Of a DNA stretch of 27,843 nucleotides, positions 521 to 13,293 are shown piece by piece. The translations under genes and the position numbers were made by a program. Positions within the stretch are counted from its first letter, which is position 1. Every line of letters begins with the position of its first letter. The notes beneath the pieces were generated by a model. The model was given only the letters and a program-made list of their open reading frames with translations. It had not been told where the DNA came from and ran no database searches. Where the stretch lies: IMG/VR virus record IMGVR_UViG_3300042731_002614, positions 1 to 27,843 of that record; one strand, 5' to 3'. The DNA is from a virus.

Positions 521-1912
521 TCACTCCCAAATCGCGTTCAGGGCCGGGTTGCACATCACCCTGGCAGTTCCGATAGCGCCCTGCCGCTGCTTTGCGACGA
601 TTATCTCCATGCGATTGTGCGCGGCATTCATTGCCGCCTCCCAAGCCTCCCTGCGCTCCATGTTCGAACCATCCGGTTCTTCGCGCGAGAGGTAGTATTC
701 ATCTCGGTAGCAGAACATCACCGTGTCGGCGTCCTGCTCAAGCTGTCCGCTTTCACGCAGATCGCTCATCATCGGCCGCTTATCTTCTCTGGATTCGAGC
801 TGCCGTGACAGCTGCGATAAAGCCAAGACTGGCACGTTCAGCTCACCGGCCAGCGCCTTGAGCGCCATGCTTATCTTGGTGATTTCCTCGTACCGGCTGT
901 TTGCTTTGGTGGTGAGCAACTGTGCGTAATCCACGATAAGAAGACGCATGTTTTCCTCACCGAGAATTCGCCTAGCCTGTCTGGCGCCGGCACGCAGTGC
1001 GCCGAGGTCGGAGAACTCGCGCGGCAGGAAAGTGATTGGCAGCTCAGCAACCTCCTGAACAGCCTGCTTGAAGGATTCAATATGTCCTTCGCTCATGCTT
1101 CCTCGCCGCATCGATGCGTATTCGACCGCCATGTTCTGGCGCACCGTCTGTTCCGAAATCGCCCGAAGCGCCATTGCCTCAGGATTCATCTCCAAGCTGC
1201 AGATCACGACGCCGTGGCCTTGTCGCGCTACGTTTAGGCCCATCGACAGCGCCACCGCCGTCTTTCCCATCGATGGGCGTCCGCCGAGCAGGATCAATTC
1301 GCCCGGGAATAAGCCAGAGACAATGCGGTCTAGCGCGTCGATACCGGAATGCACCGCCTGCCCGTCCTCGCCGTTGTGCGCCGCCACGGTTTGCTCATAC
1401 GCTATGGTGACGGCATTCATCATCGAAACAGGCTTGGCGCGCTGCGACGGTGCCGCTGCGAGCATTTCCGCCTCAAGTGCGGCCGCGATGTCAGCAGCCG
1501 ACCGTTCACCGCGCAAAACGGCAGCCCGTGCCTCCGCGGTGGCATCCAGGATGCGGCGCTTGGCTGCCATGTCGGATAGGATGCCGATATAATGATCGAA
1601 GCTGCTTTTTCCGGGCGCTGCGCCAGCCAGCCGCGCCAGGTATCTCTGGCCTCCGAGTTCTTCCATGCCTTCGCATCCGCGCGCCCATTCCGACATCGAA
1701 ACAGGGCTGACGAATGCACCCGCAAGATCGCGATCTCGCATTGCATCGAACATGGCCGCGTGAACGCCATCATAAAACAGACCCTTGCCGCCAGCCGCAG
1801 CGGTGCGGCCGATCAGTTCCGGCGACAGAAGCATCTGCCCGAGAACGGCCTGTTCTGCCTCCGCGATGTATGGTGCCTGATCTTCCTGCCTCAGCTGCGC
1901 GACTTCATTCAT
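521..1912 (-). CDS. dnaB: replicative DNA helicase, DnaB family
   Basis: A 463-residue hexameric replicative helicase, close to the usual DnaB length, unwinding duplex DNA ahead of the fork. Residues about 12-120 form the DnaB N-terminal domain (EAEQAVLGQMLLSPE). The RecA-like core has Walker A GGRPSMGKT at 210-218, the H1a region SLEMNPEAM at 239-247, Walker B LLIVDYAQL at 324-332, the H3 region LSQLSRQLE at 365-373, and the C-terminal KQRQGAIG with arginine-finger-type residues at 441-448. The ATG at 1912 lies in ATGA shared with the stop of the upstream 49-residue gene, indicating translational coupling. It sits in the left early operon with RusA, GapR and a DUF1376 protein. Confidence 0.97.
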   Translation of the reverse strand: MNEVAQLRQEDQAPYIAEAEQAVLGQMLLSPELIGRTAAAGGKGLFYDGVHAAMFDAMRDRDLAGAFVSPVSMSEWARGCEGMEELGGQRYLARLAGAAPGKSSFDHYIGILSDMAAKRRILDATAEARAAVLRGERSAADIAAALEAEMLAAAPSQRAKPVSMMNAVTIAYEQTVAAHNGEDGQAVHSGIDALDRIVSGLFPGELILLGGRPSMGKTAVALSMGLNVARQGHGVVICSLEMNPEAMALRAISEQTVRQNMAVEYASMRRGSMSEGHIESFKQAVQEVAELPITFLPREFSDLGALRAGARQARRILGEENMRLLIVDYAQLLTTKANSRYEEITKISMALKALAGELNVPVLALSQLSRQLESREDKRPMMSDLRESGQLEQDADTVMFCYRDEYYLSREEPDGSNMERREAWEAAMNAAHNRMEIIVAKQRQGAIGTARVMCNPALNAIWE

Positions 1913-2058
1913 TTTTGTTGCACCTTTTCAGCAATGCGGCGCGCCAGATCACCGATCTGCTGCCAGTTCCCGTTTTCCTGCCGTTGGTTTTCGGCGCGCT
2001 CTGGAATCTCATCCGCGCTCGTGCTGGCGTCCTCGTTGATCCGCTCGTTGAAGGTCAT
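1909..2058 (-). CDS. small hypothetical protein (49 aa)
   Basis: A 49-residue charged protein (starts MTFNERINEDAST, ends RRIAEKVQQK) with no recognised family. It is supported mainly by context: an excellent GGGAGGGAGGG Shine-Dalgarno directly upstream, an ATG overlapping the stop of the methyltransferase-like gene (ATGA), and a TGA overlapping the dnaB ATG (ATGA). The sequence looks soluble and helical with no cysteines and no membrane segment. Function unknown; a small replication accessory or merely a coupling gene are both possible. Confidence 0.75.
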   Translation of the reverse strand: MTFNERINEDASTSADEIPERAENQRQENGNWQQIGDLARRIAEKVQQK

Positions 2059-2594
2059 CCCTCCCTCCCGACAAACTCAATCGGCCCGCTGCCGCGAGCG
2101 TCGAACAGGTGCCAGGCGCAATTGTCCTTGCCGCTCGTGGTCGTGCCCTCGATCCAGATCAATCTGCCAACTGATACGACTTTCCGGCACAGGTGCTGGT
2201 ACGGCGCGCTCTGCTTTGTGTGAAGCCAGTCCGCGTCGAATAGGAGCCATGTCGGGCGCATGGCCGAGAAATGCTCAATCATCCGGTGCAGGATTGGGCG
2301 CGTCCAAACTGGGTTTGTGATGATGTGCGTTGCGCCGGTACAGTCCAGGTCTTGGAGCGTTACCGTCAGCGCGTCCAGGCGATACACGCACTCTACCTCA
2401 GGCTCGATATCTGTCGCCACAACGCACTCTGGACCGTATGCCTGAATGCCGCGAACCAGATCACCAGCCGCAGCACACGGCTCCCAGAACCTGACTCCCC
2501 ATGGCAAATGAGGTGCTAGGATGGCAGCGGCTCTCGGGTCAAATGTCCTGTATTTGTCTTTCGGCCTGCGCCGAAAGCTGCTCCGCTTTCCCAT
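2055..2594 (-). CDS. SAM-dependent methyltransferase-like protein (phage DNA N6-adenine type)
   Basis: With the start at ATG 2594 this is 179 residues. FWEPCAAAGDL (about 36-46) resembles the SAM-binding motif I and ITNPVW (about 92-97) stands where DNA N6-adenine methyltransferases carry the catalytic (D/N)PPW/Y. TWLLFDADW and WIEGTTTSGKDN further on match the phage family I recall. The catalytic motif reads NPVW rather than NPPW, so activity is uncertain. An in-frame ATG at 2612 exists, but ATG 2594 shares one base with the upstream stop (TGATG) and has GGAGG 8 nt upstream, so I prefer it. The stop overlaps the next small gene (ATGA). Most likely it modifies phage DNA, or is a degenerate homologue with a binding role. 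Confidence 0.75.
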   Translation of the reverse strand: MGKRSSFRRRPKDKYRTFDPRAAAILAPHLPWGVRFWEPCAAAGDLVRGIQAYGPECVVATDIEPEVECVYRLDALTVTLQDLDCTGATHIITNPVWTRPILHRMIEHFSAMRPTWLLFDADWLHTKQSAPYQHLCRKVVSVGRLIWIEGTTTSGKDNCAWHLFDARGSGPIEFVGREG

Positions 2595-11076: not shown

Positions 11077-11445
11077 ATGCCCCACCCCGTAGACATCCAC
11101 GTCGGAAAACGCCTTAAATCGCTGCGCCTGCTGCGCGGCCTGACCCAATCAGATGTCGCCAAGGCGCTCGGATTGTCGTTCCAGCAGGTGCAGAAATACG
11201 AACTCGGCCGCAACCGGATCAGCGCCAGCAAGCTCTACATGATCGCAGGCAAGCTCGGCGTGCAGGTCGCCTACTTATTCGAAGGCCTGGACGACACCGG
11301 CGACGGTGGCCCGGTGATCGAGGCGGAAACCGCACAGATGGCCGGGAAGATCGCCCGCATCGCCGACCCCGCCCACCGCAGCCGCATTATGGGCTTCGTC
11401 GACGCGATCCTCGACCTGCAGCAAGGCGCGGAGGCCGCGGCATGA
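11077..11445 (+). CDS. XRE-family transcriptional regulator (122 aa)
   Basis: A Cro/CI-type helix-turn-helix occupies about residues 8-65: VGKRLKSLRLLRGLTQSDVA then ALGLSFQQVQKYELGRNRIS and LYMIAGKLGVQVAYLFEG. The C-terminal half is an alanine-rich helical tail without a LexA-like peptidase site, so it is not a classic cleavable repressor. AAGGA precedes the start. Its stop overlaps the cytosine methyltransferase start (ATGA), so the two are expressed together. This could be an ordinary phage regulator or a controller of the methylase gene. Confidence 0.9.
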   Translation: MPHPVDIHVGKRLKSLRLLRGLTQSDVAKALGLSFQQVQKYELGRNRISASKLYMIAGKLGVQVAYLFEGLDDTGDGGPVIEAETAQMAGKIARIADPAHRSRIMGFVDAILDLQQGAEAAA

Positions 11446-12704
11446 AGTATGGATCGGTCTGTTCCGGAATTGAGGCGGCAACGCAAGCCTGGCATCCGCT
11501 AGGCTGGACGCCTTCGTTTTTCTCAGAGATCGATCCGTTCCCGCGCGCTGTTCTCGCGCATCATTACCCTGACGTGCCTCTGCATGGCGACTTCACAACA
11601 ATCGAAAGTGGCGACTATGACCCAATTGACCTTCTTGTCGGAGGAACCCCATGCCAATCATTCTCAATCGCAGGATTGCGCGGAGGATTGGGCGATGACC
11701 GTGGCAACTTGGCACTCGAATATCTTAGGCTGGCTGACCGACTGCGGACCAAGTGGCTGGTTTGGGAGAACGTCCCCGGCGTCCTGTCATCAAGCGGAGG
11801 ACGGGACTTTGGTTCCATTCTCGGGGGCATGGTCGAACTCGGGTATGGGGTCGCCTACCGAGTTCTTGACGCTCAGTACGTCAGAACACTGCCATTTCCT
11901 TGGGCCATTCCGCAGCGCCGGCGTCGTGTGTTCGTTGTCGGATATCTTGGAGACTGGCGACGTGCCGCAGCGGTACTTTTTGACGGCGAAAGCATGTCGG
12001 GGAATCCTCCGCCGCGCCGAGAAGCGGGGAAAGCAGTTGCCCCCACTATTAGCGCGCGCCCTACAGGCGGTGGCGGGCTAGGCACTGACTTCGATCTGGA
12101 CTGGGGATTGGTCGCAAACTCCGGTGATGTAAGCTATTGTCTTGCAGCAAGCGCACAGCAGAGCCTCGACGCCGAGACCGAGACCTTAATCGCGAGCGCG
12201 ACTGGCGACGTAAGTCACGCCCTGCGCGCAGAAGGCTTTGACGCCAGCGAAGATGGAACTGGGCGCGGAACGCTGACGATTGCCATTCAAGAGCGCGCCA
12301 TCAGCGAAAACCATAATGCTGGACCGGATGGTGCTGGCGTAAGGGATGACGGCGCAAGCTATACGCTTGAAGCTAGGTCTGTCTGTCAGGCTGTTGCGTT
12401 CGATACCACGCAGGTGACCAGCAAGGGAAATTACAGCAACCCGAAGCCCGGCGACCCGTGCCATCCATTGGCAGCAGGAGCGCACCCGCCTGCCATAGCA
12501 ACCACATGGGCTGTGCGCCGCCTGACCCCGACAGAATGCGAGCGCCTCCAGGGATTTCCTGACGGCTTCACCGACGTTCCGTGGCGCGGCAAAGATCACG
12601 CGCCAGACGGACGGCGATACAAGGCTTTGGGCAATTCATTCGCTGTGAATGTGGTCCAGTGGATTGGGCGGCGGATAGAAATGGTTGAGGCGTTCGATGT
12701 TTAA
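11442..12704 (+). CDS. C5 cytosine-specific DNA methyltransferase (420 aa)
   Basis: A DNA (cytosine-5) methyltransferase that transfers a methyl group from SAM to cytosine. Visible motifs are motif I GSVCSGIEAATQAW (about 4-17), motif IV GGTPCQSFSIAG with the catalytic cysteine near residue 70, motif VI WENVPG, motif VIII QRRRRVFVVG, and the late motifs LTPTECERLQGFPDG and ALGNSFAVNV near the C-terminus. A long glycine/serine/acidic region (about 185-350) separates the catalytic and closing motifs and probably holds the target recognition part. The first half overlaps another long open frame (11617-12081). It is coupled to an XRE regulator upstream and overlaps an HNH nuclease gene by 8 nt downstream. 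Likely roles are protecting phage DNA from host restriction or pairing with the HNH enzyme. Confidence 0.95.
   Translation: MKYGSVCSGIEAATQAWHPLGWTPSFFSEIDPFPRAVLAHHYPDVPLHGDFTTIESGDYDPIDLLVGGTPCQSFSIAGLRGGLGDDRGNLALEYLRLADRLRTKWLVWENVPGVLSSSGGRDFGSILGGMVELGYGVAYRVLDAQYVRTLPFPWAIPQRRRRVFVVGYLGDWRRAAAVLFDGESMSGNPPPRREAGKAVAPTISARPTGGGGLGTDFDLDWGLVANSGDVSYCLAASAQQSLDAETETLIASATGDVSHALRAEGFDASEDGTGRGTLTIAIQERAISENHNAGPDGAGVRDDGASYTLEARSVCQAVAFDTTQVTSKGNYSNPKPGDPCHPLAAGAHPPAIATTWAVRRLTPTECERLQGFPDGFTDVPWRGKDHAPDGRRYKALGNSFAVNVVQWIGRRIEMVEAFDV
11617..12081 (+). CDS. candidate overlapping gene in +1 frame of the methyltransferase (154 aa)
   Basis: ATG 11617 opens 154 codons entirely inside the methyltransferase gene, shifted by +1. 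The product begins MTQLTFLSEEP, contains GPSGWFGRTSPASC and SNSGMGSPTEF, then CSLSDILETGDVPQRYF, and ends with a basic helix CRGILRRAEKRGKQLPP. This is not the low-complexity composition expected of a shadow frame. I recall very similar hypothetical proteins (SLSDILETGDVPQRYFL followed by a GILRRAEKRGK segment) annotated in other phages; I could not check this. There is no strong Shine-Dalgarno (a weak GAAAGTGG). ATG 11584 is an alternative start. Function unknown. Confidence 0.5.
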   Translation: MTQLTFLSEEPHANHSQSQDCAEDWAMTVATWHSNILGWLTDCGPSGWFGRTSPASCHQAEDGTLVPFSGAWSNSGMGSPTEFLTLSTSEHCHFLGPFRSAGVVCSLSDILETGDVPQRYFLTAKACRGILRRAEKRGKQLPPLLARALQAVAG

Positions 12705-13293
12705 GTGCAAATCCTGCGGCGAAACAAAGCCGGATTCAGAGTATCGCATCCACAAAAAGGGGTATAGGATTGGCAAGTGCCGCGCTTGCGAGCGATCATA
12801 TCAAAGGGATTGGTATGCATCGCGAGGCGATTATGCTCGCAAGATGAAGCGGGACTACATGGCTCGATTGCGCGCATCCAATCCAGATGCCACCCGCGAA
12901 AAGCAACGTAAATGGCACGCAGCGAACCGTGAGAAGAATACCGCCAAAATGCGCGAATATTACGCCCGCCGATTTTTTTGGGCTAAGGCGTGCAAGCTGC
13001 GCAAGATGGGAGCTGCCAATTATACTGAATTGGCGCGTCTTTGGAAAAAGCAGCGTGGCTTGTGTGCATTAACCGGAAGACGGCTTTCGCGCGAAAACGC
13101 CGAACTCGATCACAAAATACCAAAGTCGCGAGGTGGAGGCGACGAGATTGACAACCTACAGTGGGTGACTGTTGAGGCCAATCGAGCAAAGCGTGACCTC
13201 ACTGATGGAGAATTTGCTGAGCTTTGCGGAGATGTCATGCGATGGATCGGAGACCGCATTCAGCTTGTTGAAGAACTGACCAAGGAGGGCTGA
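12697..13293 (+). CDS. HNH endonuclease with N-terminal zinc ribbon (198 aa)
   Basis: ATG 12697 overlaps the methyltransferase stop by 8 nt and follows GAGG. Residues 1-40 hold a zinc-ribbon-like CKSCGETK...CRACERSYQRDW arrangement. A long basic helix (RKMKRDYMARLRASNPDATR and so on) leads to the HNH core at about 125-175: LCALTGRRL, AELDHKIPKSRGG, IDNLQWVTVEANRAK. The aspartate-histidine and downstream asparagine are present, so it is probably active. The AT-richer codon use than the methylase suggests independent origin. It is either a free-standing homing-type nuclease or a restriction partner of the adjacent methylase. Confidence 0.9.
   Translation: MFKCKSCGETKPDSEYRIHKKGYRIGKCRACERSYQRDWYASRGDYARKMKRDYMARLRASNPDATREKQRKWHAANREKNTAKMREYYARRFFWAKACKLRKMGAANYTELARLWKKQRGLCALTGRRLSRENAELDHKIPKSRGGGDEIDNLQWVTVEANRAKRDLTDGEFAELCGDVMRWIGDRIQLVEELTKEG

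What the first reader, a model, noticed from the sequence alone, without database searches (positions are those of the whole stretch)
11617..12081. A second protein-like reading frame inside the cytosine methyltransferase gene
Seen: the +1 frame is open for 154-165 codons across the catalytic half of the methyltransferase, and its product has ordered composition, with a CSLSDILETGDVPQRYF block and a basic GILRRAEKRGK helix. From memory, closely similar hypothetical proteins are annotated in other phages, and the overlying methylase segment (LGDWRRAAAVLF, PPPRREAGKAVAPTIS) is also conserved. If both hold, this DNA encodes two conserved proteins at once, and the small one may act with the methylase.
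Basis: partly seen in the sequence, partly recalled or inferred. Interest (0 to 1): 0.78.

Follow-up and report, generated by a model that had tools for sequence, protein, structure and literature searches.

The report
Second gene hidden inside phage methylase
The same stretch of phage DNA encodes a DNA-methylating enzyme and, in a shifted reading frame, a second small protein that natural selection has preserved across phages of very different hosts, so a common phage gene turns out to be two genes in one.

Summary
Confirmed and extended. Window 11617-12081 (+) is a 154-codon ORF in the +1 frame of an intact C5 cytosine methyltransferase gene (11442-12704). It is not a chance ORF. In 94 nonredundant relatives, synonymous change in the methylase falls to 19-22% of expectation in part of the overlap and is near normal outside it. 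The +1 frame holds 13 stops against 266 expected. Conditional omega for the small frame is 0.10-0.13 at its C-terminus and above 1 in flanking controls.

In Firmicutes phage methylases found with the methylase alone, 61 of 62 have no +1 stop (0.11 expected), the +2 frame behaves as random, and the profile match to the window family exceeds a codon-permuted null. Ordinary cellular C5 methylases show no such effect. Start codons and Shine-Dalgarno sites are conserved. Every strong match examined is nested +1 in a methylase, phage P1 dmt included, except one (L549), where the domain is fused in frame to the end of a methylase whose nested copy has decayed.

Function is unproven; I favour a methylase partner protein. 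PHROGs labels it "DNA methyltransferase", and I found no paper describing it. Other phage methylase families carry their own nested +1 genes.

The parts
11442..12704 (+). C5 cytosine DNA methyltransferase gene, 420 aa, frame 0
   Evidence: Pfam PF00145 E 3.3e-44; similar to M.HhaI over motifs I-VIII and IX-X
11617..12081 (+). nested gene in the +1 frame, 154 aa, ATG start, stop 12079-12081
   Evidence: synonymous constraint, stop depletion, conditional omega
11929..12078 (+). conserved C-terminal core of the nested protein (CSLSDILETGDVPQRYFLTAKACRGILRRAEKRGKQLPPLLARALQAVAG); opposite methylase codons ~163-212, just after motif VIII
   Evidence: synonymous ratio 0.19-0.22 over methylase codons 166-195; omega of small frame 0.10-0.13 over codons 161-205
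11986..12075 (+). predicted helical hairpin, residues 124-153
   Evidence: AlphaFold2 pLDDT 94-98
11584..11616 (+). possible N-terminal extension from an upstream in-frame ATG; not favoured
   Evidence: many relatives have a +1-frame stop 7 codons before the aligned start
11077..11445 (+). upstream Cro/CI-type helix-turn-helix gene, overlapping the methylase start by ATGA (context)
   Evidence: PF01381 E 3e-14
12685..13293 (+). downstream HNH endonuclease gene overlapping the methylase end (context)
   Evidence: PF01844 E 1.6e-5

Best explanation
A true nested (overprinted) gene. Frame 0 encodes a C5 cytosine methyltransferase; ribosomes that start at an internal ATG make a second, small basic protein from the +1 frame of the same mRNA. 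SHOWN by comparative sequence analysis: both frames are under purifying selection, the small frame most strongly in its C-terminal ~45 residues (a predicted helical hairpin), and start codon plus ribosome-binding site are conserved across relatives. INFERRED: the product is translated, and it works as a partner of the methylase made from the same transcript, binding the enzyme and/or DNA through the basic C-terminal hairpin to tune its activity or targeting. I put the dual coding at about 0.97; the confidence given here is for the whole statement including the partner role.
For: Stops: 13 vs 266 expected in 94 relatives; 61 of 62 Firmicutes-phage methylases, found with the methylase only, have none vs 0.11 expected, while the +2 control frame gives 685 vs 683. 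Synonymous ratio 0.17-0.23 at the core, ~0.9-1.0 outside. Methylase third position diverges less than first position only in codons 161-200. Conditional omega of the small frame 0.10-0.13 at the core vs >=1.15 in flanks; methylase omega in the overlap 0.06-0.26. SD >=4 nt at 83% (main) and 94% (Firmicutes) of starts vs 24-26% of other internal ATGs. Main vs Firmicutes small-frame profiles score 146 vs 61-91 for codon-permuted nulls. Cellular C5 methylases: 124 vs 130 stops. Partner role: every strong match nested +1 in a methylase, and L549 carries the domain fused in frame to a methylase C-terminus (E 7e-14) with the nested frame decayed.
Against: No ribosome-profiling, proteomic or biochemical evidence. 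The window's own start lacks a clear Shine-Dalgarno (AATCGAAAGTGGCGACT-ATG). Most of the protein is predicted unstructured. Nesting alone would force co-inheritance with the methylase, so association is weak evidence of joint function. Only one fusion was found.
Confidence: 0.55

Rival explanations
1. The nested gene is real but its protein does something unrelated to the methylase (for example a counter-defence or host-takeover factor); it merely lives inside the methylase gene.
For: Same sequence evidence for coding. Disordered small basic proteins are typical of phage counter-defence (general knowledge). Occasional intact small ORF beside a broken methylase, L290.
Against: No unnested copy found except the methylase fusion L549; a free-standing function would be expected to escape the overlap more often.
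Confidence: 0.35
2. The +1 frame is read only by programmed frameshifting, giving a methylase N-half fused to the small-protein C-terminus.
For: Selection is strongest at the C-terminal end, and P1-type genes seem to have lost the N-terminal half of the small frame.
Against: Conserved internal start and Shine-Dalgarno, and a +1-frame stop just upstream of the start in many relatives. No slippery site was sought systematically.
Confidence: 0.07
3. The synonymous conservation reflects an RNA or DNA element, not a protein.
For: Synonymous constraint alone cannot separate the two.
Against: The constraint follows codon periodicity of the +1 frame, stops are avoided in +1 but not +2, and tolerated changes are the ones synonymous in the small frame; no Rfam match.
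Confidence: 0.02
4. A chance ORF kept open by the methylase's own conserved residues and codon bias.
For: A single GC-rich gene can be open by chance (probability about 0.035 for the window gene).
Against: Shuffles that keep amino acids and codon usage predict 266 stops where 13 are seen, and 404 where 31 are seen, all 31 in one sequence.
Confidence: 0.01

Closest known systems
phrog_16143 ('DNA methyltransferase', 139 aa) and annotated nested CDSs such as Streptococcus phage P0092 gp45
   Same: Streptococcus phage small-frame proteins score E 1.9e-81 against it; 70 of 72 members of the window family match it, best E 4.8e-13
   Different: Its name appears to be carried over from the overlapping gene; the small protein has no Pfam methylase match. 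The window protein itself matches only weakly (E 3.6e-4) and has a C-terminal hairpin that the Streptococcus form lacks.
Overprinted nested genes of viruses (reviewed in PMC8227390)
   Same: A second protein encoded in an alternative frame of an older gene
   Different: Here the host gene is a catalytic enzyme of large tailed phages, the nested gene is spread over very distant phages, and one copy appears to have moved out of the overlap by fusion.
ShiLan-type out-of-frame HNH insertions in phage methylase genes (PMC11855218)
   Same: A second ORF out of frame with a phage methylase
   Different: ShiLan is an inserted homing element; here the methylase's own conserved motifs are read twice, and no HNH domain is present.
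phrog_1008 ('DNA methyltransferase', 329 aa)
   Same: Also a +1-frame product nested in a phage C5 methylase family, under the same kind of dual constraint
   Different: About 300 codons long, with no profile similarity to the window protein beyond null

Membership tests
Overprinted (nested) gene | Alternative frame stays open in relatives beyond expectation | tested here: met
   13 vs 266 stops; 61/62 stop-free vs 0.11 expected
Overprinted (nested) gene | Purifying selection on the nested frame, independent of the host gene | tested here: met
   conditional omega 0.10-0.13 at the core, 0.23 in codons 121-160 given methylase-nonsynonymous change, weak in the N-half
Overprinted (nested) gene | Conserved start and ribosome-binding site | tested here: met
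   the window copy itself has a weak site
Overprinted (nested) gene | Demonstrated translation product | not testable with these tools
   no expression data available
Overprinted (nested) gene | Restricted to a subset of the host gene's family (younger than the host gene) | tested here: met
   26 ordinary cellular C5 methylases show random stop numbers in +1 (124 vs 130)
DNA methyltransferase (the PHROG label of the small protein) | C5 methylase domain in the small protein | tested here: not met
   no Pfam or NCBIfam match
phrog_16143 | Profile match over most of the length | tested here: inconclusive
   window protein E 3.6e-4 over residues 50-126; other members down to 4.8e-13
ShiLan-type out-of-frame homing insertion | HNH endonuclease encoded out of frame in an inserted segment | tested here: not met
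   no HNH match, and the overlapped segment is the methylase's own motif IV-VIII region
Beta subunit of a split C5 methylase | Target-recognition region with motif IX in the partner protein | tested here: not met
   no Pfam match; motif IX-X lies in the window's frame-0 methylase

The most novel reading that the evidence does not exclude
Phage C5 methylases form a class of two-component enzymes in which the second subunit is written in the +1 frame of the first: a short accessory protein in the window, Firmicutes and P1 families, and longer partner proteins in up to three further methylase families whose frame 0 seems to lack motif IX. Having both subunits on the same bases would fix their linkage and co-production, and L549 would be a lineage that converted the nested subunit into a fused domain.
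Probability: 0.35. Interest if true: 0.93.

Novelty: new variant of a known kind. Interest (0 to 1): 0.82.

Why it matters
Long same-strand nested genes are thought rare in large DNA phages, and annotation pipelines suppress them. This one is found in phages or prophages of Proteobacteria, Acidobacteria, Planctomycetes, Actinobacteria and Firmicutes, with a weaker +1 match in a Methanobacterium virus, and sits in phage P1 dmt, a classic laboratory gene. It has been hidden under the label 'DNA methyltransferase'. It gives a strong natural system for how two proteins evolve on the same bases, with one apparent case of escape (L549), and suggests that phage orphan methylases have an unrecognised partner.

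Tried and rejected
Chance ORF: rejected. RNA element: no Rfam hit and the constraint follows +1 codon periodicity. Known domain: none in Pfam, NCBIfam, PADLOC or PDB sequences. Structure: AlphaFold low confidence for the window family outside the C-terminus and for nearly all of the Firmicutes form, so no fold search was run. Unnested copies: searched in viral contigs and about 900 cellular genomes; one fusion (L549) found, and a viral-contig scan with its domain returned nothing. Several weak matches (14-24 bits) without a methylase nearby are treated as chance. Homology of the small protein to phrog_1008: not above null. Motif IX in the +1 products of other families: noticed by eye, but methylase HMMs do not match them beyond one 1.5-bit hit, so it stays a lead. 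Homology of the window family to the third family was not above null directly (90 vs 67-97), only through the Firmicutes form (125 vs 86-95). Literature searches found no description; only openly licensed papers were searchable.

Full report
WHAT IS THERE. The window is a 27,843-base virus record with phage genes around the locus (DnaB helicase, ERF recombinase, minor tail protein). At 11442-12704 (+) lies a 420-aa C5 cytosine methyltransferase (PF00145, E 3.3e-44; similar to M.HhaI), starting on the ATGA of an upstream helix-turn-helix gene and overlapped at its end by an HNH gene. Within it, 11617-12081 is a 154-codon ORF in the +1 frame. It spans methylase motif IV to about 50 codons beyond motif VIII. 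For this gene alone an open frame has a chance of about 3.5%, so the window by itself proves little.

RELATIVES. A search with the small protein found 345 confirmed viral loci (best 80 kept); one with the methylase found 31 loci independently of the small frame. The +1 relation is universal: 311 of 312 small-domain matches in 280 loci lie purely +1 of a methylase, and the remaining one lies over a frameshifted methylase, L028 (some loci come from the same contig, so these are not 312 independent cases). A further 82 of 82 do so among relatives of Thibault gp104, and the strong matches among 200 Brucella-related, 200 Acidobacteria-related, 248 Actinobacteria-related and 244 Undibacterium-related genomes do so with one exception. 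Phage P1 dmt carries a shorter form, and 493 of 5,426 E. coli genomes hold a match to the P1-type core, mostly on plasmid records.

SELECTION ON THE SECOND FRAME. In 94 nonredundant methylases the ratio of observed to expected synonymous codon difference is 0.9-1.0 outside the overlap, 0.4-0.7 in most of it, and 0.19-0.22 over methylase codons 166-195, returning to 0.87 after codon 211, where the small ORF ends; the 23 methylase-found sequences give the same shape. Over codons 161-200 the methylase third position, which is the second position of the small frame, diverges less than the first position; nowhere else by a clear margin. Stops in +1: 13 seen, 266 expected; 89 of 94 sequences have none, 6.4 expected. 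Counting single changes by their effect in each frame, the conditional omega of the small frame is 0.13 and 0.10 at the C-terminal core, 0.23 (given methylase-nonsynonymous change) in codons 121-160, about 0.7-0.8 in the N-terminal half, and above 1 in flanking controls; the methylase is also under selection in the overlap (0.06-0.26). At the core the small frame is more conserved than the methylase frame (78% vs 70% identity).

INDEPENDENT REPLICATION. Firmicutes phage methylases were collected with the methylase sequence only; synonymous shuffling predicts about 6.5 stops per gene in their +1 frame, so a long open frame is very unlikely by chance. Of 62, 61 have no stop (0.11 expected); the 31 stops seen are all in one gene; the +2 frame shows 685 against 683 expected; and the synonymous ratio drops to 0.17 at the same place. 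Profile comparison of the two +1 products scores 146 against 61-91 for codon-permuted nulls, so they are homologous beyond what the methylase imposes. As a negative control, 26 cellular C5 methylases show 124 stops against 130 expected; three further genes in that sample with no stop are nested-gene types themselves.

TRANSLATION SIGNALS. A start codon is found in 90 of 94 window-type and 62 of 62 Firmicutes genes; a Shine-Dalgarno match of at least 4 nt precedes 83% and 94% of them, against 24-26% of other internal ATGs. Many relatives also have a +1 stop 7 codons upstream, so translation must begin after it. The window copy itself has a weak site.

MECHANISM. Shown: two coding frames, both selected. 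Inferred: both are translated from one mRNA by internal initiation, and the small protein assists the methylase. Reasons: no unnested copy except L549, where a recognisable copy (E 7e-14) forms the C-terminal domain of a complete methylase whose nested frame is full of stops, a gene-fusion argument for joint action; and the basic helical hairpin could bind DNA or the enzyme. Against certainty: nesting by itself forces co-inheritance, and there is no biochemical evidence.

COMPARISON WITH THE KNOWN. PHROGs holds Streptococcus forms as phrog_16143 under the name 'DNA methyltransferase', and some records annotate both frames, e.g. P0092 gp44 and gp45. I found no paper that recognises the dual coding. 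The nearest is the out-of-frame HNH in the ShiLan insertion (PMC11855218), which is a different thing. The kind, an overprinted gene, is known; its breadth, its host gene and the escape by fusion are new to my knowledge.

A WIDER PATTERN. While checking PHROG hits I found that phrog_1008 proteins are themselves +1 products of another phage C5 methylase family (73 genes: 10 stops vs 239 expected over codons 40-340, synonymous ratio down to 0.24). A third family (L597-L613, 12 genes used: 1 stop vs 48 expected) and probably a fourth (L633, one gene) do the same. The third is related to the Firmicutes small protein by profile comparison above null; phrog_1008 is not. In these families frame 0 seems to lack methylase motif IX and the +1 product has a segment resembling it by eye, but HMM tests did not support this. 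If right, phage C5 methylases would include two-subunit enzymes written in overlapping frames.

Noticed in passing
L376:1439-2506(-) with 1447-2403(-); L377; L378-L457: A second phage C5 methylase family carries a ~318-aa +1-frame gene (phrog_1008), dual-coding over about 300 codons; where frame 0 is free (codons 166-285) the +1 frame dominates (omega 0.09 vs 0.92 for the methylase).
   Followed up: yes
L597:1245-2138 with 1291-2124; L598, L599, L600-L613: A third C5 methylase family with an almost completely overlapping +1 ORF of ~278 aa; frame 0 appears to lack motif IX, and the +1 product contains 'RWLxGSERLxIMGFAxDWM'.
   Followed up: partly
L633, +1 ORF in the methylase ORF 1354-2343: A probable fourth family: +1 product with 'TWPRSGMMRNG ... 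FTEWMMGVPKGWT' nested in a C5 methylase, no +1 stop in the tested stretch (4.5 expected).
   Followed up: no
L549:340-1893: A complete C5 methylase with the small-protein domain fused in frame at its C-terminus, while the nested frame has decayed: an apparent escape from overlap.
   Followed up: partly
L294 (Mycobacterium phage Thibault) 620-2421: Methylase interrupted by an HNH gene with the methylase frame still open across it (ShiLan-like); the small frame survives as annotated gp104.
   Followed up: partly
L114 (phage RCS47 dmt) about 2500-2605: The sequence just before the PCQ-type motif looks like the C-terminal end of an intein (HSYILNGAVVHN|CQAF).
   Followed up: no
window 12685-13293: HNH endonuclease gene overlapping the 3' end of the methylase gene; a similar HNH-like ORF seems to follow the methylase in relative L066.
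   Followed up: no
phrog_16143 and phrog_1008: Both PHROG families are named 'DNA methyltransferase' although their members are the alternative-frame products without a Pfam methylase domain: a labelling error that spreads into phage annotation.
   Followed up: yes
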